From positions 1 through 48,343 of the forward strand of contig JASGUU010000049.1 of the NCBI GenBank assembly GCA_030057555.1: a stretch of 48,343 nucleotides of DNA, written 5' to 3'. The notes under the pieces were generated by a model. The model was not told the origin of the DNA, did no database searches, and saw only the letters and a program-made list of their open reading frames with translations. The translations under genes and the position numbers were made by a program. The DNA comes from Bacillota bacterium (GTDB lineage: Bacteria > Bacillota > Clostridia > Saccharofermentanales > Fastidiosipilaceae). Positions 2,754 through 42,187 of this stretch are shown here, in pieces. The number at the start of each line of letters is the position of its first letter. Positions within the stretch are counted from its first letter, which is position 1.

Positions 2754-3227
2754 GTGGCGAAGGGTAGGTATCATGAATGGCTCGAGCCGGACAACCTCGA
2801 CATCCTCAGCTCCTGGGCTAGGCGCGGTCTCACCGAGGAGCAAATCGCTCAAAATATCGGGATCTCTGTCCGCACTCTTTCCCGGTGGAAGCTGGCTCAT
2901 AGTCCGATCTGTCAGGCCTTAAAAAAGAGCAAAGATCAGGCGGATGCTCTTGTCGAGAATGCGCTGTTCAAGCGTGCTGTTGGCTTCCGCGTGCCGAAAA
3001 AGGTCACAAAGAAGAAAGAGATCGTCAATGCCGCGGGCAAGACGATCCGGACGGAGATCCAAACGCAAGAGAGTTCTGTCTACTATCCGCCCGACCCAAC
3101 CAGCATCGCGATCTGGCTTAACAACCGGCTGCCTCAGCACTGGCGACAGCGCCGTGAGCCGAGTGACATTGACTCGGGTGATCGCCTCGATGCATTGCTC
3201 GAGAAGCTCGATGAGGCAATGGGCTAA
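2754..3227 (+). CDS. terS: Terminase small subunit
   Basis: A 157-residue DNA-recognition subunit of the packaging motor. The N-terminal helix-turn-helix (about 15-45) reads GLTEEQIAQNIGISVRTLSRWK, typical of TerS. It is followed by a helical region and a short C-terminal acidic helix (LDALLEKLDEAMG). The start is GTG at 2754, chosen because GGAGGTGAG at 2740-2748 is correctly spaced. The stop overlaps the ATG of the large subunit by one base. The protein would bind the pac or cos region, possibly the iterons upstream. Confidence 0.87.
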   Translation: MAKGRYHEWLEPDNLDILSSWARRGLTEEQIAQNIGISVRTLSRWKLAHSPICQALKKSKDQADALVENALFKRAVGFRVPKKVTKKKEIVNAAGKTIRTEIQTQESSVYYPPDPTSIAIWLNNRLPQHWRQRREPSDIDSGDRLDALLEKLDEAMG

Positions 3228-4459
3228 TGGCAGCGGCATTTACAGTTAAGCAGCAAGAAGTATGGCGCGAGACCATGCGGAAGCATCATCGCTGGAACTT
3301 CCAGATTGGTGCAGCTAGAAGCGGAAAGACATACCTGGACTACTTCAGGATCCCTGCACGGGTCCGGCGCACAACGGGAAGCGGCCTGATCGTGCTGATG
3401 GGGAACACCAGGGCGACCATCGAACGAAACATCCTCGAACCAATGCGCGGCATCTGGGGGGAAGGGATGATCGGTCGAGTAAGGAGCTCGGGCGAAATCA
3501 ATCTCTTTGGGCGCTCTGCCTGGGCGCTCGGAGCCGACAACATCTCGATGGTGGAGCGGATCCGTGGTAGTTCGATCGAATACTGCTACGGCGATGAAAT
3601 ACCAACTTGGCACAGAGACGTATTTGACATGCTGAAGAGCCGTCTCGACCGTCCGAACTCGACCTTTGACGGGACGGGAAACCCCGCAGCACCTACTCAC
3701 TGGCTGAAAGTGTTCCTCGACTCAGACGCCGACATCTATTCGATGCATTACAGCATCGACGACAACACCTTCCTTGATCCGGTGTTCGTGCGGGAGCTAA
3801 AGAAGGAGTATGCCGGATCAGTCCTGTATGACCGCTACATCGAAGGCCTGTGGGTGGCAGCTGAAGGTGTCATTTACAAGCTGCTGGCTGACAACCCGGA
3901 GCGTTACATCATCGATGAGCTCCCGGAGAGCCTTGCCTTCGGAACGATCGGCATTGACTTCGGTGGAAACAAATCTGGCCACAGCTTCACATTCACGGGG
4001 CTGCCCAGGACGTTGGATCGGGTGGTTACCATTGCAGACCACTATCGGCAGGGCATCATCACGCCCGCGCAGCTGGAGACGGACTTCATCTCGTTTCTAC
4101 TGCGTTGCCAGAGCTACAAGATCCCCATCGTCGACATCCGCGCAGACAGCGCTGAGCAGGTCCTAATCGCCGGGCTGAATTCCGCTCTGATCGCGGCGCG
4201 GATGCCGTACCAGGTACAGAACGCAATCAAAGGGCCGATCATTGATCGGATCCGGCTTTATACGCTGCTGCTGGCGCGAGACCGCTGGCAGATCATGAGA
4301 GATTGCGAGTCGACAATTGGAGCCTTCCGGTCGGCTCTTTATGACAGTAAGTCGATGGATGACAGGCGACTTGATGACGGGACAACGGTGATTGACCCGA
4401 TCGACAGCCAGGAATACAGCACAGAGCCCTACGCAGAGGCTCTTCTTTACGGGAGGTGA
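3227..4459 (+). CDS. terL: Terminase large subunit (packaging ATPase/nuclease)
   Basis: A 410-residue packaging motor protein that pumps DNA into the prohead and cuts genome ends. Walker A is GAARSGKT at 28-35 and Walker B ends at D123-E124 in CYGDEIP. The C-terminal RNase H-like nuclease begins with IGIDFGGNK (D244), with further acidic residues downstream (for example D316 region, RADSAEQ). Length is normal for the group. It overlaps terS by one base and is followed four bases later by the portal gene. Confidence 0.93.
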   Translation: MAAAFTVKQQEVWRETMRKHHRWNFQIGAARSGKTYLDYFRIPARVRRTTGSGLIVLMGNTRATIERNILEPMRGIWGEGMIGRVRSSGEINLFGRSAWALGADNISMVERIRGSSIEYCYGDEIPTWHRDVFDMLKSRLDRPNSTFDGTGNPAAPTHWLKVFLDSDADIYSMHYSIDDNTFLDPVFVRELKKEYAGSVLYDRYIEGLWVAAEGVIYKLLADNPERYIIDELPESLAFGTIGIDFGGNKSGHSFTFTGLPRTLDRVVTIADHYRQGIITPAQLETDFISFLLRCQSYKIPIVDIRADSAEQVLIAGLNSALIAARMPYQVQNAIKGPIIDRIRLYTLLLARDRWQIMRDCESTIGAFRSALYDSKSMDDRRLDDGTTVIDPIDSQEYSTEPYAEALLYGR

Positions 4460-4463
4460 GTGG

Positions 4464-5882
4464 ATGCCAGTCATCGAGTTCCTTCGCAAACAGGGCTTCA
4501 ATCCGGCATCGCCGCCTGAAGAGATGGAGACATGGCTTGCCTGGTACAAAGGCAATACCGAGAGCTTTCATTCATACACGGTCTACAACGGCATCGCGTT
4601 CACTGGGCAGAAGCGGGCGAGCATGCGCATGGCCAAGCAGATCTGCGCCGACTGGGCATCGCTGCTTCTGTCGGAGCGTGTTGAAGTCTCGACCGAAGAT
4701 GAGCGCCTGAACGATCTAGTTCAGCACGTCTTTGAGTTCAATGGCTTCGACTTCAGGGCAAACCAGCTCGTGGAGTTAACATTCGCGCTCGGGACAGGAG
4801 CCTTCGTGGAGTTCTTTGATGCCAGTGGGCAGATCGTCATTGACTACGTGCGGGGCGATTGCATCTACCCGCTTGCCTGGGAGAATGGCGAGATCACTGA
4901 CTGCGCATTTGCGAGCGTTCGGCGTGTGGCCGGGAAGGATCGCTACTACGTCGCGATTCACAGCCTGAAGACTGGTGGGTATGTTGTAACAAACCACCTG
5001 ATCGACAAGGACAGCGGCAAAGAGGTGGCCCTGCCGGATGGCATTGCTCCGGAAGTCCCGACCCGAAGCTCACAGCCCCGATTTCAGATCATGCAGCCGA
5101 ATCTGGTCAACAATGTCGACTTGGACAGCCCCTTTGGAATCTCGGTTTACGCGAACGCAATCGACCGACTGAAGAAGGTCGACCTGATTTTTGATTCAGG
5201 TAATAACGAGTTCCAGCTAGGGAAGAAGCGGATCATCGTGCCGCTCACGATGGCCAGAACAGCGGTTGCAGAGGCACAGAAGAAACCGATCTTTGACCCG
5301 AATGACGTCGCCTTCTATGGCCTTGACCTTGGTGGTGACAGCAGAGAGACCCAGAAACCCATTGATCTGACATCGGATCTCAGGATCGAAGCACATTCTC
5401 AGGGGCTGCAGGACGCTCTGAACTACCTGTCAGACGGGGTCGGCCTCGGGACAGACCGGTACGAATACCAGCGTGGAGGGGGCGGAGTCAAGACTGCGAC
5501 TGAGGTGGTATCGGAGAAGTCAACACTCTATCAGAACCTCCAGCGTCACAAGCTGCCGGTCAGGAAGGCAATCATTGATCTCTGCAAATCGATTGCTGTC
5601 ATGGCGGGCATGAATCCGGATGTCGAGATCTCGGTCAATTTTGATGACAGCATCATCCAGGACGAGACAGCAATCCGACAGAAGGCGATGCTCGAATATC
5701 AGGCCGGCCTCATTGATGAGGTTGCCTACTTCATGGAGACGCGCGGACTGGATGAGGAAACAGCAAAGCGGTTTGTTGCTGACATCAAGGCGCGACAGGG
5801 AGAGACGGTGGAGACGCTGATGTTGCCTCAGGAGCATGCCGAATTCATCGAACCGGAAGACGAGGGCCAAGAGGAGCGTTAA
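4464..5882 (+). CDS. Portal protein (SPP1 Gp6-like)
   Basis: A 472-residue portal, the dodecameric ring at the DNA-entry vertex. The sequence resembles the SPP1 Gp6 group: N-terminal MPVIEFLRKQGFNP, a central region with GTGAFVEFFD and an acidic C-terminal tail (EPEDEGQEER). An upstream in-frame ATG at 4392 lies inside terL; ATG 4464 is preferred because GGGAGGTG at 4451-4458 is ideally spaced and the longer start would overlap terL by 68 bases. It stops directly before the ATG of the minor capsid gene. Confidence 0.9.
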   Translation: MPVIEFLRKQGFNPASPPEEMETWLAWYKGNTESFHSYTVYNGIAFTGQKRASMRMAKQICADWASLLLSERVEVSTEDERLNDLVQHVFEFNGFDFRANQLVELTFALGTGAFVEFFDASGQIVIDYVRGDCIYPLAWENGEITDCAFASVRRVAGKDRYYVAIHSLKTGGYVVTNHLIDKDSGKEVALPDGIAPEVPTRSSQPRFQIMQPNLVNNVDLDSPFGISVYANAIDRLKKVDLIFDSGNNEFQLGKKRIIVPLTMARTAVAEAQKKPIFDPNDVAFYGLDLGGDSRETQKPIDLTSDLRIEAHSQGLQDALNYLSDGVGLGTDRYEYQRGGGGVKTATEVVSEKSTLYQNLQRHKLPVRKAIIDLCKSIAVMAGMNPDVEISVNFDDSIIQDETAIRQKAMLEYQAGLIDEVAYFMETRGLDEETAKRFVADIKARQGETVETLMLPQEHAEFIEPEDEGQEER

Positions 5883-7763
5883 ATGATTGCGCAGGTGGTG
5901 AATGAGGCAATGTCGCTCGAGGAGCTGACACAGCAGCTCGAGGATGATCTCATCGCCAACATCGCAAGGCGCATCAGGGTCGACGATGAAGGGGCCGTTT
6001 CCGGGATCGACAACTGGTACATGGAGAAGCTCCATCAGCTTGGAGCGCTTCACAGAGAGAACGTCGAGATCATTGCACGCTCATCGCCAGCCCAGGAGGA
6101 GGCACTCATTCAGGCGATTCAGGACGCCGGTTATGGAGCAGTCGCGGAGGCTGATCGAATCTTCCGTCAGGCCTATCGCCTCGGGCGGCTTGTGGCCATT
6201 CCGGTGTCGGCAAGTCAGTCGCCACAGATCCGCCGCATCCTGGACGCTGTTGCTGCCAATGCGAGGCAAGAGCTAAACCTGACGAACACTACTGCTCTGC
6301 AGTCCTCCAGGAGGGCCTATCTTGATGCAGTGAATCAGGCTTATTTGTCCGTGGTTACGGGAACGCGCGACTATGGAAGCGCGATCAGACACGCCGTGCA
6401 GCAGCTCGGAGAGCGAGGCATCAAAGGCGCAACGTACCAGGGCATTGACCGAAACGGAAGGCCCTACAGACGCCAGGAGCAACTTGATGTTGCAGTTCGC
6501 CGCAATGTGCTGACATCAAGCGCGCAGGTCACGAACGAGATGCAGTTGACCAGAGCGCAGCAATGGGGCAGCGACCTCGTTGAGGTGTCAAGCCACGTCG
6601 GAGCGCGCCCTTCGCATGCCGAGTGGCAGGGCCGCATCTACAGCATAAGCGGGAAGTCGAGGAAGTATCCGAGTTTCTACCAGGTGACAGGGTACGGAAC
6701 CGCCGGCGGGCTCGGAGGAGTCAACTGCGGCCACACGTTCTACCCATACTTTGAGGGAGTCAGCGAACGGGCCTACCGTCCGGTTCCGATGGAGGAGAAC
6801 AATCGTGTCTATGCCGAAGCCCAGCGACAGAGACAGCTCGAGCGTGACATCCGAAGCGAGAAACGTAAGATTGTCGCTGCTGATGCTGCGGGCGATGATA
6901 CTGGCGTCGCAAATTCGCGTAGACGCCTGGCAGCAAAACAAGCCGAAATGCGCGAGCACGTTAGAACCACTGGACGCACACGGAGGCCGGATCGCGAGCA
7001 CGTTGCAGGCGTGCCGAGATCATCTCCATCGAAGGGACCCTCTACACATCGACCGCCAACCGTGCCGTCAGCGACATCAAAGGCTCCGAAGCCACCAGCG
7101 CCGCCGGTCGTGCGAGATGCAAAGACTCACAGCGAACTTGAGCAGGTGATTACGCAGAGATATTCTGCTGTCTATGATTCTGGATTGAGCCGGAGCGATT
7201 TTGATGCAGTGAAGTCTGTTGTCACTGGCTTCACCGACATCCTGGATGAGTACCCTGACTTGATTCCGGCTTTCACAGAGATTGCACCGGTTGATCGAGG
7301 CGTCATGTGCATGAATCGAATGGGCAGACTTGGCGTGAATCCAAGATATTTCACGAGCATGAAGAATCTGGAGGCGACGGCGAGGAATTGTTCAGCCTCC
7401 AGATTCTGGCCAGCCAACGCGACGCCTGCAAGCATCGGAGCTCATGAGGCGGGACACCTGCTTGAGTCGATTATCATTAATCGAAATGCGACCTACACAT
7501 CAGCGCTTGAACGATCAATGGCGTGGTCGAAATGCACCGAGGCGAAGCGCATCACACGCCAGGCATGGTTGAACGTGCGAGGGGATGCAGTTTACCGTGG
7601 GATGAGCAAAGCGCAGATCACGCAGGACATTTCGAGGTATGCGACGAAGAGCGCATCCGAGTGTCTTGCTGAGGCCGTGGCAGACGTGTACACGAACGGA
7701 ACGAACGCGAAGCGTTACTCACAGGCGATTGTCGACATAATCAGAAAGGAGCTGGCACCATGA
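5883..7763 (+). CDS. Phage minor capsid protein 2 fused to a zincin-like domain
   Basis: A 626-residue fusion. Residues 1 to about 330 are a Phage_min_cap2-type head protein, shown by SSHVGARPSHAEWQG (about 236-250) and GGVNCGHTFYPYFEG (about 278-292). A basic, proline-rich linker follows (about 358-412). The last 200 residues contain HEAGH at 521-525, a gluzincin-like zinc motif with E522 as candidate catalytic residue, and SECLAEAVAD at 592-601, where E593 or E597 could be the third ligand. The usual protein lacks this C-terminal domain. Extra domains on this head protein are often toxins or enzymes carried into the cell with DNA; that role here is inference. It abuts the portal gene and overlaps the next small gene by 4 bases. 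Confidence 0.85.
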   Translation: MIAQVVNEAMSLEELTQQLEDDLIANIARRIRVDDEGAVSGIDNWYMEKLHQLGALHRENVEIIARSSPAQEEALIQAIQDAGYGAVAEADRIFRQAYRLGRLVAIPVSASQSPQIRRILDAVAANARQELNLTNTTALQSSRRAYLDAVNQAYLSVVTGTRDYGSAIRHAVQQLGERGIKGATYQGIDRNGRPYRRQEQLDVAVRRNVLTSSAQVTNEMQLTRAQQWGSDLVEVSSHVGARPSHAEWQGRIYSISGKSRKYPSFYQVTGYGTAGGLGGVNCGHTFYPYFEGVSERAYRPVPMEENNRVYAEAQRQRQLERDIRSEKRKIVAADAAGDDTGVANSRRRLAAKQAEMREHVRTTGRTRRPDREHVAGVPRSSPSKGPSTHRPPTVPSATSKAPKPPAPPVVRDAKTHSELEQVITQRYSAVYDSGLSRSDFDAVKSVVTGFTDILDEYPDLIPAFTEIAPVDRGVMCMNRMGRLGVNPRYFTSMKNLEATARNCSASRFWPANATPASIGAHEAGHLLESIIINRNATYTSALERSMAWSKCTEAKRITRQAWLNVRGDAVYRGMSKAQITQDISRYATKSASECLAEAVADVYTNGTNAKRYSQAIVDIIRKELAP

Positions 7764-7915
7764 TTGAGGAACCGATCTTCTGGGACAAACTCATCTATGA
7801 CGAAGATGGTTTTGTCGCTGGACTGAGCGAAGATGCCACACCTGAAGAGCGGAAGGCCTACGAGGAATACCTCAAAGCGGAACGCTTGGCCGAGGCGGAA
7901 GGCGACAAACTCTAA
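7760..7915 (+). CDS. 51-residue phage protein, unknown function
   Basis: A short frame starting at ATG 7760 overlaps the minor capsid stop (ATGA). AAAGGAG at 7745-7751 provides the ribosome binding site. The product is very acidic (MIEEPIFWDKLIYDEDGF, then TPEERKAYEEYLKAE) and probably helical. Small acidic proteins of this kind are common between the minor capsid and scaffold genes of Firmicutes phages. A strong terminator hairpin begins 23 bases after its stop. Confidence 0.7.
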   Translation: MIEEPIFWDKLIYDEDGFVAGLSEDATPEERKAYEEYLKAERLAEAEGDKL

Positions 7916-7937
7916 GCAAGAGAGAACCATCCAACTG

Positions 7938-7968
7938 GAGCGACAGTCTAAAGGCTGCCGCTCTTTTT
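7938..7968 (+). terminator. Terminator after the portal/minor capsid genes
   Basis: The hairpin pairs GAGCG (7938-7942) with CGCTC (7959-7963) and, inside, CAGTC with GGCTG around a TAAA loop. It is followed by five T residues (7964-7968). This is a good factor-independent terminator shape. It probably lowers transcription ahead of the structured leader of the scaffold gene, or works with antitermination. Confidence 0.75.
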
Positions 7969-7970
7969 AT

Positions 7971-8023
7971 GCCGCGAACTGGTGACACCTGGATTAAGGG
8001 GAGGTTCGATTCCTCATCGCGGC
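7971..8023 (+). ncRNA. tRNA-like structure lacking an anticodon arm
   Basis: A 7-bp acceptor-like stem is formed by GCCGCGA (7971-7977) and TCGCGGC (8017-8023). A T-arm-like hairpin GAGG-TTCGATT-CCTC (8001-8015) stacks next to it, with a loop that closely matches the tRNA T-loop. The remaining 23 bases hold a small GGT/ACC hairpin but no anticodon arm, and the whole is only 53 nt. There is no CCA end. It is therefore a tRNA mimic or part of a larger RNA, not a normal tRNA. It lies in the leader of the scaffold gene. Confidence 0.6.
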
Positions 8024-8095
8024 GGCTCCGAGATTACACGCTGAGCAGACCCCCGCTGCTCACGGCGCACTGGCCGAGGAACAGTGCTCGGAGCC
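8024..8095 (+). ncRNA. Three-way-junction RNA next to the tRNA-like fold
   Basis: A perfect 9-bp closing stem pairs GGCTCCGAG (8024-8032) with CTCGGAGCC (8087-8095). Inside are two hairpins: TGAGCAG/CTGCTCA (8042-8048 with 8056-8062, 7-nt loop) and CACTG/CAGTG (8068-8072 with 8082-8086). The first stem starts on the base after the tRNA-like 3' strand, so the two would stack coaxially. I recall that comparative searches have reported conserved RNAs upstream of GP20-type scaffold genes; I cannot test whether this is one. Confidence 0.6.
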
Positions 8096-8159
8096 ATTTA
8101 TGTCTGGCTGCAGCTGCAGGAGGCGAGCCGGGCTCCAGCGCGATCGCGCACCATCAAAC

Positions 8160-8198
8160 AGCCGATGAGGCTCTAAATCAGCGGACCGATGAGGCCGC
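8160..8198 (+). promoter_or_regulatory. Two hairpins with identical GATGA loops before the scaffold RBS
   Basis: CCGATGAGGC occurs at 8162-8171 and again at 8186-8195. Each forms a hairpin with the same five-base loop GATGA closed by CC/GG: AGCC/GGCT (8160-8172) and GCGG-a-CC/GGCCGC (8181-8198). The second ends directly before the GGGAGG ribosome binding site of the scaffold gene. Twin hairpins with one loop suggest protein-binding translational operators. Confidence 0.5.
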
Positions 8199-8209
8199 GG
8201 GAGGATCCC

Positions 8210-8746
8210 ATGAGTGACGACCAGAACAAGCAGCCCGAAGTCGATGAGACCTCTGGGACGCAGCCCGAAGTCGATGAGACGAAGGGGAAAGAAACCAAAA
8301 CGTACACGCAGGAAGAAGTTGACCGTCTTGTTGCCATTCAGAAGGCCAAGCTGCCGGATAAGAAAGCCTGGGACGAGTTCCAGGCATGGCAACAGGAGAA
8401 GAAAAAGTCCGAGACGCCGAATCCTGAGGCTGATGAAGCCCTGAGGAAGCTGGCGGAGGCCGAGGCGCGGATCCAGATGTTTGAGAACCGCGAGAAAGCG
8501 ATCAAGGCAGGGGTCGCGGCGGAGTTCGCCGATTATGCGACCTATGAAGTCCAGAAGCTCGTCAATGATGACACGGACTTCGACACCGCCCTGATCACCT
8601 GGCTGAAGACGAATGAGCGCTTCAAGACGGGTCAGCAGTCTCCACCCTCATCGGAAGGGATGCGCCATGGTAGTGCTCCTCCGAAAACGGATGGGGTCGA
8701 GGATGCGTTCTTCCGGCGGAATCCGACCCTGAAAGGAAAAGTCTAA
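8210..8746 (+). CDS. Capsid scaffold protein (GP20/DUF4355-like)
   Basis: A 178-residue, highly charged protein. The N-terminus has a tandem 10-residue repeat (QPEVDETSGT, QPEVDETKGK), encoded by a 20-bp direct duplication. A long coiled coil spans about 55-105, and the end FFRRNPTLKG matches the conserved tail of phage scaffold proteins. The scaffold directs capsid assembly and is removed before packaging. An in-frame ATG at 8189 lies within the leader hairpins; ATG 8210 follows GGGAGG and is preferred. It stands 14 bases before the major capsid gene. Its leader carries an unusually structured RNA. Confidence 0.85.
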   Translation: MSDDQNKQPEVDETSGTQPEVDETKGKETKTYTQEEVDRLVAIQKAKLPDKKAWDEFQAWQQEKKKSETPNPEADEALRKLAEAEARIQMFENREKAIKAGVAAEFADYATYEVQKLVNDDTDFDTALITWLKTNERFKTGQQSPPSSEGMRHGSAPPKTDGVEDAFFRRNPTLKGKV

Positions 8747-8760
8747 GGAGGACAAATTAA

Positions 8761-9582
8761 ATGGCACACGCTGCTCAGGATCGCTACGCCAAGCTCGTGC
8801 TGGCAAAGCTCCACGCAACCCTCGTGACGAAGGATAACTTCATCTTCAACAATATCTACGAGGGCACGCCGACCGCTGGCATGGTCAAGATTCCCGTGCG
8901 CGACACCAACCCGTCAGTGCGCGACTACAACAAGGCCACCGGCATTGTTCTTGAAACCGGGACGACCACCTACATGGACCTCCCGATCAACAAGGACAAG
9001 GCCGTGAACGAACTGATCGATGGCTATGATGCTGCCGCTGTCCCGGATGGCATTATTGCCGAACGTCTCGACAGTGCTGGCTATGCGCTCGGTCTCTCCC
9101 TCGATCAGGAAGGCATCACCATGCTCGAGACCGGAGGCACCGCGCTCACGGACACGACAGCATGCACGAAGGCCGATGTGATGACGAAGATCATCGCTGC
9201 ACGCACGGCGCTCGGGAAAGCAAATGTTCCGACGGACAATCGCTATCTGCTCGTCTCCCCGGAGATCATGGGACTCCTGCTCCTGTCCCCGGAATTCATC
9301 AAGTCCGGGGATCTCGCCCAGGAGCTGGTTGCCGCCGGAGTTGTTGGCCGCATCGCGGGCTTCAACGTCTTCGAGACGAACAACTTCTCACGCCCGAAGA
9401 CGGAGTTCATCGCCGGGCATCCTGGCTGGTCTCACCGTGTCATCGACTGGCGCGTGAACCCGTATGTGCAGGACCTGTCTGGTGACGCTCTCTTTGTCGG
9501 TGCATCTGCCGTCAAGGGCCGCATCTGCTACGGCCAGAAGATCAGCCGCGCTCTGACTGTCCAGGTCAAGAAGACGGCGTAG
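8761..9582 (+). CDS. Major capsid protein (HK97-fold)
   Basis: A 273-residue coat protein that forms the icosahedral shell. It follows the scaffold gene and has strong GGAGG (8747-8751) and ATG signals. Text typical of the family includes KIPVRDTNPSVRDY in the extended arm region, IIAARTALGKANVP, and YLLVSPEIMGLLL in the peripheral domain. The length (about 270-300) is usual for coat proteins that have a separate scaffold and no prohead protease; no protease gene is present here. Confidence 0.92.
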   Translation: MAHAAQDRYAKLVLAKLHATLVTKDNFIFNNIYEGTPTAGMVKIPVRDTNPSVRDYNKATGIVLETGTTTYMDLPINKDKAVNELIDGYDAAAVPDGIIAERLDSAGYALGLSLDQEGITMLETGGTALTDTTACTKADVMTKIIAARTALGKANVPTDNRYLLVSPEIMGLLLLSPEFIKSGDLAQELVAAGVVGRIAGFNVFETNNFSRPKTEFIAGHPGWSHRVIDWRVNPYVQDLSGDALFVGASAVKGRICYGQKISRALTVQVKKTA

Positions 9583-20808: not shown

Positions 20809-20832
20809 AGCGGCGAAAGGGCCGCTATTTTT
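20809..20832 (+). terminator. Terminator closing the Panacea cassette
   Basis: AGCGGC (20809-20814) pairs with GCCGCT (20821-20826) around GAAAGG, followed by ATTTTT. Directly after it, TGCCCC/GGGGCA (20834-20850) forms a second hairpin that touches the AGGAGG ribosome binding site of the endolysin. The string CCGCTnTTTTTATGCC recurs at 7959-7973 before the scaffold leader. Confidence 0.75.
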
Positions 20833-20865
20833 ATGCCCCGAAAAGGGGCAAGGAGGAACATCAAC

Positions 20866-23056: not shown

Positions 23057-23073
23057 GTGGCGGAGAAGGAGGG
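23057..23073. other. att core (17 bp) at the tRNA-Ser 3' end
   Basis: GTGGCGGAGAAGGAGGG here is repeated exactly at 40903-40919; the match stops at both ends. It corresponds to the last bases of the tRNA acceptor/T-stem, the classic target of tyrosine integrases. Phage DNA lies to the left and host DNA to the right. Confidence 0.8.
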
Positions 23074-23146
23074 ATTCGAACCCTCGCACGCTTGCACGTC
23101 TAACGGTTTAGCAAACCGTCCCCTTCGGCCACTTGGGTACTTCTCC
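23058..23146 (-). tRNA. tRNA-Ser (GCU anticodon)
   Basis: On the minus strand the acceptor GGAGAAG pairs with CTTCTCC, followed by discriminator G and an encoded CCA. The anticodon loop reads TTGCTAA within ACGGT/ACCGT, giving GCU. A long variable arm (ACGTGC...GCGTGC region) is present, as expected for serine. The T-arm is GAGGG-TTCGAAT-CCCTC. The gene is intact: the prophage recombined at its 3' end and restored it. Confidence 0.95.
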
Positions 23147-38308: not shown

Positions 38309-38536
38309 AATGAACGGGGCGGAGGCTGCGTCAGCACAGGGCGGTACGCCGGAGCCCGGTCCCGGCTCTTTACGGAAGACCTTGTTTTCGTATGCCTGTA
38401 ATTCCGGCTGCTCGCCTGGATCAGGGAGAAATCTGGCACATGCAGAGCGATCCAGGTTCTGTAGCCCAGATGCCGTGTGATAAAGGCGATCCCGACAAGC
38501 AGTGCGCCGCACAGCAGCGTGCGCGCCCTTCTTCAT
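38309..38536. other. Intergenic stretch with remnant of a signal-peptide gene
   Basis: No intact gene. On the minus strand a start at 38536 (MKKG...) is followed, one reading frame over, by TLLCGALLVGIAFI, a good membrane or signal segment. The combination suggests the 5' end of a frameshifted gene, cut off by the hairpin array. Weak evidence. Confidence 0.35.
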
Positions 38537-39015
38537 GGTCAGGATGTGGACTTTTCCAAATCTTTTTTTGGATTACTCTTCGTTTTGACCAGAAACGGCC
38601 CCTTTTTGGTCAGGATGGCGAGTAATCCAAATTGTTTTTTGGATTACTCCCAAAGTTGACCAGAAACGCCCCCTTTGTGGTCAGGATGGCGAGTAATCCA
38701 AATCTTTTTTTGGATTACTCCTCGTTTTGACCAGAAACAGCCCCTTTGTGGTCAAGATGGCGAGTAATCCAAATTGTTTTTTGGATTACTCCCAAAGTTG
38801 ACCAGAAACGCCCCCTTTGTGGTCAGGATAGGGACTTTTCCAACTCTTTTTTTGGATTACTCCTCGTTTTGACCAGAAACAGCCCCTTTGTGGTCAAGAT
38901 GGCGAGTAATCCAAATCTTTTTTTGGATAACTCCTCGTTTTGACCAGAACCGGCCCTTTTGTGGTCAAGATAGCGAGAAATCCAAATTATTTTTGGATAA
39001 CTCTTCATTTTGACC
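38537..39015. repeat. Array of seven hairpins with an exact 71-bp period
   Basis: Units start with GGTCA at 38537, 38608, 38679, 38750, 38821, 38892 and 38963, exactly 71 bp apart. Each is a palindrome of about 54 bp, GGTCA...GAGTAATCCAAA-n-TTTGGATTACTC...TGACC, separated by a 17-bp spacer like AGAAACnGCCCCTTTGT. Units 1 and 5 share a variant left arm (GGACTTTTCCAA) that no longer pairs with its right arm. Spacer-side variants partly alternate, suggesting a 142-bp higher-order unit. Open frames through it are chance. Confidence 0.9.
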
Positions 39016-39413
39016 ACCAGAAGTCCGCAGGCTTTTTTCCCTGCCAGCCGTCCTTCTGGCATGCACCCCCGTTTCCCGCCCGGGTGCGCCTCCTGCCGTT
39101 CTCTGTCGTGGTTTCAGACAGGTTGTCTAATTCCTGCAGTCTCATCTCAGGGGTGCCAGACGTGTAACGTACTCTTCACCCAGGTCATGCCACAATATTC
39201 GCCGCTCCATCAATGGTCCTGGGGGTCTGGTGCTTCACTGCCACGTTGAACCACAGCTTCTGCCGCATCCGGCTTCGAGCTGATCTGAAAAAGGGATAGA
39301 CCGGGTCTGGTGTTGCCTGACTTCACCCAGAAGTGGACGATTTGACGCTTCAACACTTCAAGTGATAGATAAGCAACAGCATACCTGTCTATCTTTTCTA
39401 AACCGTAAACATA
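39016..39413. other. Gene-poor stretch
   Basis: Roughly 400 bases without a convincing gene. On the minus strand a 27-codon frame (about 39272-39189) starts MRQKLWFNVAVKH and could be a fragment of a decayed gene, possibly a transposase. No terminal inverted repeats or flanking duplications are visible. Confidence 0.35.
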
Positions 39414-40902: not shown

Positions 40903-40919
40903 GTGGCGGAGAAGGAGGG
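40903..40919. other. att core, second copy
   Basis: GTGGCGGAGAAGGAGGG, identical to 23057-23073. No tRNA body follows here; instead phage DNA with the integrase gene begins. This is a hybrid att site (bacterial left arm, phage right arm). Confidence 0.8.
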
Positions 40920-40993: not shown

Positions 40994-42187
40994 TTATACC
41001 GTCATTGCGTCAAGGATGCGCTCAAAAACGCTGTTTATGGCCTCTGCTTCAGCGAGTGCCTTTGCGTCTCTCTTTCGTTGATCTTCCGGAAGCAGATCGA
41101 TCTCATGATTGTATGTCCGGTCTGTTGACATTTGTTCCGTGTGTCCGACCAGTAGTTTGATGTCCTCTTCCGAGACGCCGGCAAGTTGCCTGCCGTAGCT
41201 CACGAAAGTATGCCGCAGATGATGAAGCGTCACAGTTATGCCATGCGCAGACGCGAAGAAGCGCCAGGCATCGCTCAGGCGTCGAGGCTTGAGCAGCCCT
41301 CCATCCGCGTCCGGGAATAAGTAAACAGGCTTACTTACACGGCCTGTATCCTTGGCACGTGCGATGTGAGCGTCTAGCTCTATCTGGGCAAGTCTCCCGA
41401 GTGTGATAACGCGCCCTTTATGGATGGACTTCCCGTCAGTCACGTCCAGATCATGACTGATGGACTCGTTAATAATGATCTGCCCAGGACTGCTCTCAGT
41501 CGGTGGGCGATAGTCGCGGCTGGCCTTGAGTGCGCAGAATTCGCCGCGGCGAATTCCGGTTAAGGCGATGAAGCGGAAGCAATGGATATACCAGCTTGCA
41601 TCATCGGTCTCCGGTGAAAGCAAAAGGGCTAGCTGCGAAGGCTGGAGGATCTGAGCTTTCTTGGGCGGTGTGCGGACTGGGTAATCGAAGTAGATCGGGA
41701 CATCGATATCTGCGATCCATCCGCGCCCGGCAGCGAACTTGCAGAATCCCCGGATTGTGGTGGCGATGCCCTCAAGTGTCTCGCGCGATGCACCATGCCC
41801 AGTCTTCTTCTTTATCCTGACGTTCGCCTGGTCAATGATGCGCTGCCAGTCTGCCTTTGTGATCTCCGACAGCTTCTTGTTCTTCAGCGGTCGGAGCAGG
41901 TGTGCGGCGCCTCGGGTACGGAGTCCCTTCCAACTTGTTACTTTGTTTTTTATGCGGTACCAGTCCAGGTACTCCTGCCAAGCATCAGAAAAGAAGATCC
42001 CTTCGGGCTGATCGACGCTTTCAATCCATTCAAGATACTTCTGCCGGCATTCCGCAGGGCCGCGCTTCCCTGATGCGATTTTGGAATAGAACGTTTTCCG
42101 CTTGCCCTTATACCTTGCGTCCATCTTCCAATACTGGCGGTTCTCATCCCAGCGCGGTGTTGGCATGTCAGCCGCGCGCCTAGCCAT
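40994..42187 (-). CDS. int: Phage tyrosine integrase
   Basis: A 397-residue tyrosine recombinase. An N-terminal AP2-like arm-binding part (RWDENRQYWKMDARYKGKRKTF) is followed by a SAM-like core-binding domain (about 63-165). The catalytic domain has R213 (TGIRRGE), K about 258, H322 and R325 (HHLRHTF), H349 (VGHT) and Y359 (DRTYNH). All key residues are present. It is transcribed toward the att core 75 bases away and overlaps the ImmA-like gene by 8 bases. The target is the tRNA-Ser 3' end. Confidence 0.95.
   Translation of the reverse strand: MARRAADMPTPRWDENRQYWKMDARYKGKRKTFYSKIASGKRGPAECRQKYLEWIESVDQPEGIFFSDAWQEYLDWYRIKNKVTSWKGLRTRGAAHLLRPLKNKKLSEITKADWQRIIDQANVRIKKKTGHGASRETLEGIATTIRGFCKFAAGRGWIADIDVPIYFDYPVRTPPKKAQILQPSQLALLLSPETDDASWYIHCFRFIALTGIRRGEFCALKASRDYRPPTESSPGQIIINESISHDLDVTDGKSIHKGRVITLGRLAQIELDAHIARAKDTGRVSKPVYLFPDADGGLLKPRRLSDAWRFFASAHGITVTLHHLRHTFVSYGRQLAGVSEEDIKLLVGHTEQMSTDRTYNHEIDLLPEDQRKRDAKALAEAEAINSVFERILDAMTV

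What the first reader, a model, noticed from the sequence alone, without database searches (positions are those of the whole stretch)
7938..8095. tRNA-like fold plus three-way junction in the scaffold leader
Between minor capsid and scaffold genes, about 290 non-coding bases carry a terminator, a 53-nt tRNA-like fold (7-bp acceptor GCCGCGA/TCGCGGC and a textbook T-arm with TTCGATT loop, but no anticodon arm), and directly after it a three-way junction with a perfect 9-bp closing stem and two internal hairpins. Stems of 7, 9, 7 and 5 bp in close order are unlikely by chance. Possible jobs: timing of scaffold/capsid expression, tRNA mimicry (RNase P, EF-Tu or synthetase binding), RNA cleavage, or a packaged RNA. 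I recall that conserved RNAs upstream of GP20 genes have been reported; whether this is one needs testing.
Basis: partly seen in the sequence, partly recalled or inferred. Interest (0 to 1): 0.85.

Follow-up and report, generated by a model that had tools for sequence, protein, structure and literature searches.

The report
Armless tRNA-like element before phage scaffold
Just before the capsid-building genes of this bacterial virus lies a stripped-down tRNA shape, in the very spot where related viruses keep ordinary or oddly shaped tRNAs; this suggests, but does not prove, that the tRNA shape marks where the viral message is cut in two.

Summary
At 7971-8023 lies a 53-nt tRNA-like fold: 7/7 Watson-Crick acceptor, T-arm 4 of 5 pairs, canonical TTCGATT loop, no anticodon arm. 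It starts 2 nt after a terminator's U-run and abuts a three-way junction (8024-8095). Chance expectation is about 3e-5 per leader. The 82-aa ORF over it looks non-coding. It is not an Rfam tRNA, mascRNA or GP20-b RNA.

The new fact is where it sits. In 140 unique loci (860 kb) around relatives of this capsid gene, every ARAGORN tRNA lies in one place: plus strand, between the minor-capsid and scaffold genes. With a strict tRNA-shape descriptor, 10 of 11 distinct hits lie there. The occupants change identity (Trp, Gln, Ser, Met, Ala) and include non-canonical forms. One D-armless pair (L066/L072) keeps all 17 base pairs with 5 double compensatory changes.

So the window element is a reduced tRNA in a conserved pre-scaffold tRNA slot. 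My preferred function is "punctuation": RNase P cuts here, splitting portal mRNA from scaffold-capsid mRNA. That is inferred, not shown. A decaying cargo tRNA is the main rival. The window TLS and three-way junction have no diverged homologue, so their own selection cannot be tested.

The parts
5883..7763 (+). phage minor capsid protein (Phage_min_cap2), upstream gene
   Evidence: Pfam PF06152 E=2.5e-90, PHROG 581
7760..7915 (+). 51-aa ORF of unknown function before the leader
   Evidence: no Pfam or PHROG match
7937..7968 (+). intrinsic-terminator-like hairpin with U-run 7964-7968, ending 2 nt before the TLS
   Evidence: fold z -3.5; terminator scan; same hairpin + U-run 2-3 nt 5' of slot tRNAs in relatives
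7971..8023 (+). tRNA-like element (TLS): acceptor 7971-7977/8017-8023, T-stem 8000-8004/8012-8016, T-loop 8005-8011 TTCGATT; no anticodon arm, no encoded CCA
   Evidence: chance 4 per 40 Mb; sub-threshold mascRNA 19.6 and tRNA-Sec 18.7 bits
8024..8095 (+). three-way junction: closing stem 8024-8032/8087-8095, hairpin 1 8039-8067, hairpin 2 8068-8086; abuts the acceptor stem with no linker
   Evidence: fold z -4.0; no homologue in 65 loci or 391 genomes
8161..8171 (+). GCC-GATGA-GGC hairpin, possible counterpart of the N3-GACR-N3 hairpin before the scaffold Shine-Dalgarno in relatives
   Evidence: relatives 28 of 123 leaders against 0-2 for control loops
8210..8746 (+). head scaffolding protein, Shine-Dalgarno GGAGG at about 8200-8204
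   Evidence: PHROG 2303 E=8.9e-14
8761..9582 (+). major capsid protein used to collect relatives
   Evidence: PHROG 267 E=2e-32, Pfam PF25209

Best explanation
The element is a reduced tRNA (acceptor + T-arm minihelix) in a pre-scaffold tRNA slot shared by this family of phages, whose named hosts are mostly Clostridia. Shown: the fold, its non-chance nature, the slot, the changing tRNA identity in the slot, and structural conservation of a D-armless relative in the same slot. Inferred: in the late transcript, made by reading through the terminator, the minihelix is recognised by host RNase P, which cuts between U7970 and G7971. The cut leaves the terminase-portal-minor-capsid mRNA with a terminator hairpin sealing its 3' end. 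It leaves the scaffold-capsid mRNA with a 5' end held in the TLS and backed by the three-way junction. The two halves can then decay and be translated independently, giving much more scaffold and capsid than portal. In short, phage 'tRNA punctuation', mechanistically like the tRNA-like mascRNA cut from MALAT1.
For: Positional: all ARAGORN tRNAs in 140 unique loci (860 kb) lie in this slot, plus strand. Strict descriptor: 10 of 11 distinct hits fall in the slot, which is 9.7% of strand-bases, binomial about 7e-10. A follow-up scan by scaffold protein, plus a GenBank gut phage, added tRNA-Trp and tRNA-Ala in the slot and none elsewhere. Identity is not conserved (Trp, Gln, Ser, Met, Ala) while tRNA shape and place are, which favours shape over decoding. 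L066/L072 D-armless elements: 17/17 pairs kept, 5 double compensatory changes, none when the structure is slid by 1-2 columns. The U-run ends 2-3 nt before the tRNA/TLS in window, L060, L136, L138, L163 and L187, also L276 and L336; this leaves no room for a promoter, so the TLS is reached only by read-through. A stable hairpin lies directly 5' in 9 of 12 loci, z < -2. ORF 7969-8217 has flat codon-position GC (0.63/0.62/0.63, against about 0.6/0.4/0.7 in neighbours) and no Shine-Dalgarno.
Against: No RNA or enzyme data. The window TLS lacks the 3' RCC(A) that helps RNase P, and its discriminator is locked in the next stem. The only other copy is 99.94% identical, so selection on this TLS is untested. 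In the MFE of the whole leader the TLS does not form. Only about 15 of 140 unique loci hold a tRNA or TLS in the slot, so it is not essential to this capsid module. The slot is also a place for small inserted genes and terminators, and may be the main intergenic space of the module, so tRNAs there may be plain cargo. tRNAs also occur 5-6 kb upstream, near the packaging genes, in some records.
Confidence: 0.4

Rival explanations
1. Decaying cargo tRNA. The slot is a spot where phages pick up tRNA genes that help decoding or resist tRNA-cutting defences; the window copy lost its D and anticodon arms by deletion and now does nothing.
For: Intact tRNAs with CCA in the same slot; the slot also holds small ORFs; the middle of the TLS matches host tRNA-Leu(UAG) locally (GACAC-CTGGATTnAGG; 2.3% of shuffles as good), as a two-deletion derivative would.
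Against: The acceptor is 7/7 WC and the T-loop canonical, more perfect than many intact slot tRNAs; the L066/L072 pair shows that a non-canonical form can be kept with compensatory changes; the global match to host tRNAs is not significant.
Confidence: 0.33
2. Leader regulator. The TLS and three-way junction form one structured 5' leader that controls translation or stability of scaffold-capsid mRNA, perhaps by binding a tRNA-binding or phage protein, as one may suspect for GP20 RNAs.
For: Known GP20-b RNA occupies the same leader in L061 and L162; three-way junction z -4.0; zero-nt linker between acceptor and closing stem allows stacking; a GACR-loop hairpin precedes the scaffold Shine-Dalgarno in 28 of 123 leaders.
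Against: The window is not GP20-b; the three-way junction is found in no relative; intact tRNAs in the slot are more easily explained by tRNA processing enzymes.
Confidence: 0.17
3. A protein-coding stretch: the 82-aa ORF 7969-8217, which overlaps the scaffold start, is the real feature and the pairings are incidental.
For: ATG at 7969, open to 8217 with an ATGAGTGA overlap.
Against: No Shine-Dalgarno (U-run precedes the ATG), flat codon-position GC, pairings beyond chance.
Confidence: 0.03

Closest known systems
Phage-encoded tRNA genes (Rfam RF00005)
   Same: acceptor stem, T-arm and T-loop; same slot as intact tRNAs in related phages
   Different: no anticodon arm, no D-arm consensus, no CCA; RF00005 finds no match at E<=1 in the record of the identical copy L021
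mascRNA/menRNA (RF01684), the tRNA-like RNA cut from MALAT1 and MEN-beta by RNase P (its biology is from memory)
   Same: small tRNA-like fold with shrunken D and anticodon arms; would work as an RNase P cut site whose upstream product has a protected 3' end
   Different: 19.6 bits against a cut-off of 42.5; bacterial virus, terminator hairpin instead of a triple helix; cleavage unproven
Mitochondrial tRNA punctuation (tRNAs between genes mark cuts in a polycistronic RNA; named in the abstract of PMC8601606)
   Same: tRNA-shaped units, same strand, between protein genes of one operon; armless forms occur in both
   Different: one slot, not many; bacterial enzymes; processing not shown
GP20-b RNA (RF03003)
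   Same: lies in the leader of the phage scaffold gene; present just after the slot tRNA in L061
   Different: different structure; window scores nothing
C4 RNA of P1/P7 and M3 RNA of phi80 (RNase P substrates of phages; from memory, not tested here)
   Same: phage RNA processed through a tRNA-like fold
   Different: C4 is an antisense repressor; no sequence or location link tested

Membership tests
tRNA (RF00005) | 7-bp acceptor and T-arm with TTCRANN loop | tested here: met
   T-stem 4 of 5 pairs
tRNA (RF00005) | anticodon arm with 7-nt loop, D-arm | tested here: not met
   22 nt between acceptor and T-arm, only 3-bp hairpins possible; ARAGORN finds none
tRNA (RF00005) | score over the family cut-off | tested here: not met
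mascRNA-menRNA (RF01684) | score over the gathering cut-off 42.5 | tested here: not met
   19.6 bits
mascRNA-menRNA (RF01684) | cleavage by RNase P | not testable with these tools
   needs biochemistry
GP20-b RNA (RF03003) | score over cut-off 36.2 in the scaffold leader | tested here: not met
   no match in window or own genome at E<=1, nor up to E 10 in 7700-8300
tRNA punctuation | tRNA-shaped unit between protein genes, same strand, recurrent position | tested here: met
tRNA punctuation | transcript cut at both ends of the tRNA | not testable with these tools
   no RNA data
RNase P substrate (bacterial) | stacked acceptor/T-stem of about 12 bp | tested here: met
   7 + 4(5) bp, contiguous 3' strands
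RNase P substrate (bacterial) | 3' RCC(A) | tested here: not met
   3' of the acceptor reads GGCT; helpful but not always required (general knowledge)

The most novel reading that the evidence does not exclude
Phages of this family use tRNA shape rather than tRNA identity as a punctuation mark before the scaffold-capsid genes. Intact tRNAs, D-armless forms and an anticodon-armless form are interchangeable RNase P cut sites that decouple portal from capsid mRNA: tRNA punctuation in a DNA virus of bacteria.
Probability: 0.33. Interest if true: 0.8.

Novelty: new variant of a known kind. Interest (0 to 1): 0.6.

Why it matters
Phage tRNAs are usually explained by decoding or defence evasion. A fixed slot where identity varies, and where forms that cannot decode or look unfit for it are kept, points to another use: making RNA ends at the boundary where capsid genes need far higher output than portal. 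It is directly testable and would give a clean bacterial parallel to mitochondrial tRNA punctuation and to MALAT1 processing.

Tried and rejected
DNA similarity to phages and to 98 genomes from the same genus, family and order: no relative of the leader. Rfam at gathering and relaxed thresholds: no family. Covariance model of TLS + three-way junction against 65 loci and 391 genomes: only the window itself; L136/L138 at E about 1 come from the tRNA T-arm and a nearby hairpin. Searches with minor capsid and portal proteins: only a 99.94% identical copy, so covariation for the window element is impossible. Parent tRNA: T-arm closest to slot tRNA-Trp (15 of 17), middle closest to host tRNA-Leu(UAG), but the global test was not significant, so parentage is left open. 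The idea that hairpins ending in ACCA in L055 and L171 are further reduced tRNAs was considered and not adopted, because similar hairpins in L133 and L065 are plain terminators. Three-way-junction homology to leader hairpins of L060/L163 was considered from loop similarity (GGAGAA against GAGGAA) and not established. RF03002 was tried as a guess for GP20-a but is another family. More genomes of the phylum and of one other order gave no new loci. Unresolved discrepancy: the L113 tRNA scores 49 bits in the genome search but cmscan did not list it.

Full report
WHAT IS THERE. The window is one contig of a bacterial genome and holds a prophage: TerL 3227-4459, portal 4392-5882, minor capsid 5883-7763, a 51-aa ORF 7760-7915, scaffold 8210-8746 and MCP 8761-9582. 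The leader 7916-8209 holds a terminator-like hairpin (7937-7964, U-run to 7968), the TLS (7971-8023) and a three-way junction (8024-8095) as described, with one addition: the T-stem pairs 4 of 5, the outermost pair being a G-A mismatch. Simulation gives 4 such TLS in 40 Mb. The three-way junction has z -4.0. The ORF over the whole region has flat codon-position GC and no Shine-Dalgarno, so the leader is most likely non-coding. A caution: in the full 301-nt MFE the TLS strands pair elsewhere, so the TLS would have to fold locally and early.

KNOWN FAMILIES. ARAGORN and Rfam at gathering score see only the tRNA-Ser at 23058-23146. Below threshold the best matches are mascRNA-menRNA (19.6 bits) and tRNA-Sec (18.7). 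GP20-b, the known RNA of phage scaffold leaders, is present in relatives L061 (42.1 bits, directly between a tRNA-Gln and the scaffold start) and L162 (57.6) and sub-threshold in L069, but not here.

RELATIVES. MCP searches gave 252 loci, 140 unique by MCP segment, 860 kb. Apart from a 99.94% identical metagenomic copy those compared with the window are at about 45-56% MCP identity, and none carries this TLS or three-way junction. But every ARAGORN tRNA in these loci lies in the same place, plus strand, between minor capsid and scaffold: tRNA-Trp (L060, L136, L138, L163), Gln (L061), Ser (L026), Met (L187) and an element with an 8-nt anticodon loop (L111, L113, L115, L122); a D-reduced tRNA (L043) joins them through the descriptor and Rfam. 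A stricter descriptor finds 11 distinct hits on both strands, 10 in the slot, against 9.7% expected. That null ignores the fact that tRNAs need intergenic space, which is scarce in these modules. An additional scan by scaffold protein gave two further loci with a whole tRNA-Trp in the slot (L323, L336), another copy of the L136 type (L314) and one cut at the contig end (L334), and a GenBank gut phage (L276) has tRNA-Ala there; ARAGORN found none elsewhere. In whole records, other tRNAs occur mainly about 5-6 kb upstream near the packaging genes, so the slot is one of two favoured places.

SHAPE UNDER SELECTION. L066 and L072 carry a homologous 64-66 nt element with no D-arm, T-loop TGCRAWT and loop TTCGTRG, about 1 kb before the scaffold with a small ORF between. 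Flanking DNA is about 91% identical. The element differs more, yet all 17 pairs are kept with 5 double changes, against 0 double changes and about a third of cells paired when the structure is slid by 1-2 columns. It is only two sequences, but it argues that a non-canonical tRNA shape in this slot is maintained rather than decaying.

ARCHITECTURE. In window, L060, L136, L138, L163 and L187 the U-run of a terminator ends 2-3 nt before the tRNA/TLS, also visible in L276 and L336. A stable hairpin directly 5' is seen in 9 of 12 loci, including L066/L072, which have no U-run. No sigma-70-like promoter is found from 7600 to 8800 (other promoter types are not covered), and there is no room for one between terminator and TLS. 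So the TLS must be transcribed by reading through the terminator.

MECHANISM. Cutting such a read-through transcript at the tRNA 5' end would leave an upstream mRNA ending in a hairpin and a downstream mRNA starting in the TLS. RNase P recognises stacked acceptor/T stems (general knowledge). In the window the acceptor abuts the junction stem with no linker and there is no CCA, so RNase Z may not cut and the TLS may stay as a 5' cap; this is inference. The strongest argument for shape over decoding is that identity varies while place and shape persist. The strongest argument against is that the slot also takes ordinary cargo and most phages lack any tRNA there.

VERDICT. Real; tRNA-related with high confidence (about 0.9 by shape plus slot); function as processing punctuation moderately likely (0.4); relic of cargo tRNA the main rival (0.33). 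New variant of a known kind.

Noticed in passing
L022, L026, L029, L040, L043, L044, L045, L056, L057, L066, L078, L084, L087, L108, L119, L186, L205, L270 and others, last 60 nt before the scaffold ATG; window 8161-8171: A small hairpin N3-GAC(G/A)-N3 lies just before the scaffold Shine-Dalgarno in 28 of 123 leaders (GCC/GGC, GCT/AGC, GTC/GAC, GTT/AAC stems), against 0-2 for control loops. The window has a GCC-GATGA-GGC version. Possibly a protein-binding or translational control site.
   Followed up: partly
L044, L060, L063, L086, L101, L105, L204 and others; window 7964-7973 and 20828-20837: A recurrent junction at module borders: terminator hairpin, T5-7, then (C)ATRCC. Overlapping-match counts in 860 kb: 113 forward against 1-12 for permuted controls; 66 non-overlapping places. 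Slot tRNA-Trp genes and the window TLS start inside it.
   Followed up: partly
L022, L025, L026, L029, L043, L066, L072 (about 50-200 nt before the scaffold): A promoter-like TTGACT...TATAAT followed by a terminator hairpin with U-run nested inside an outer stem with differing but pairing sequences; looks like a conserved attenuator-type leader.
   Followed up: no
window 23057-23073 and 40903-40919: A 17-bp direct repeat (GTGGCGGAGAAGGAGGG) joins the tRNA-Ser 3' end and a site next to the integrase (40994-42187): likely att sites. They bracket a 17.8-kb host-like segment, so the prophage appears split in this contig, as if circularly permuted or misassembled.
   Followed up: partly
window 38536-39016: Tandem array, 71-bp unit, 6.8 copies, 83% matches, with an inverted-repeat core (GAGTAATCCAAA..TTTGGATTACTC).
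   Followed up: no
L111, L113, L115, L122 slot element: tRNA-like element with C1-A72 mismatch and an 8-nt anticodon loop (ARAGORN: tRNA-???, catt); possibly an initiator-like or frameshift-type tRNA.
   Followed up: no
L055 and L171, slot: Hairpins ending GGC-ACCA stand where close relatives have a tRNA ending in GCCA, with the same downstream DNA.
   Followed up: partly
L045 2199-2293: Skipping-rope RNA (RF02924, 49.5 bits) upstream in the same module.
   Followed up: no
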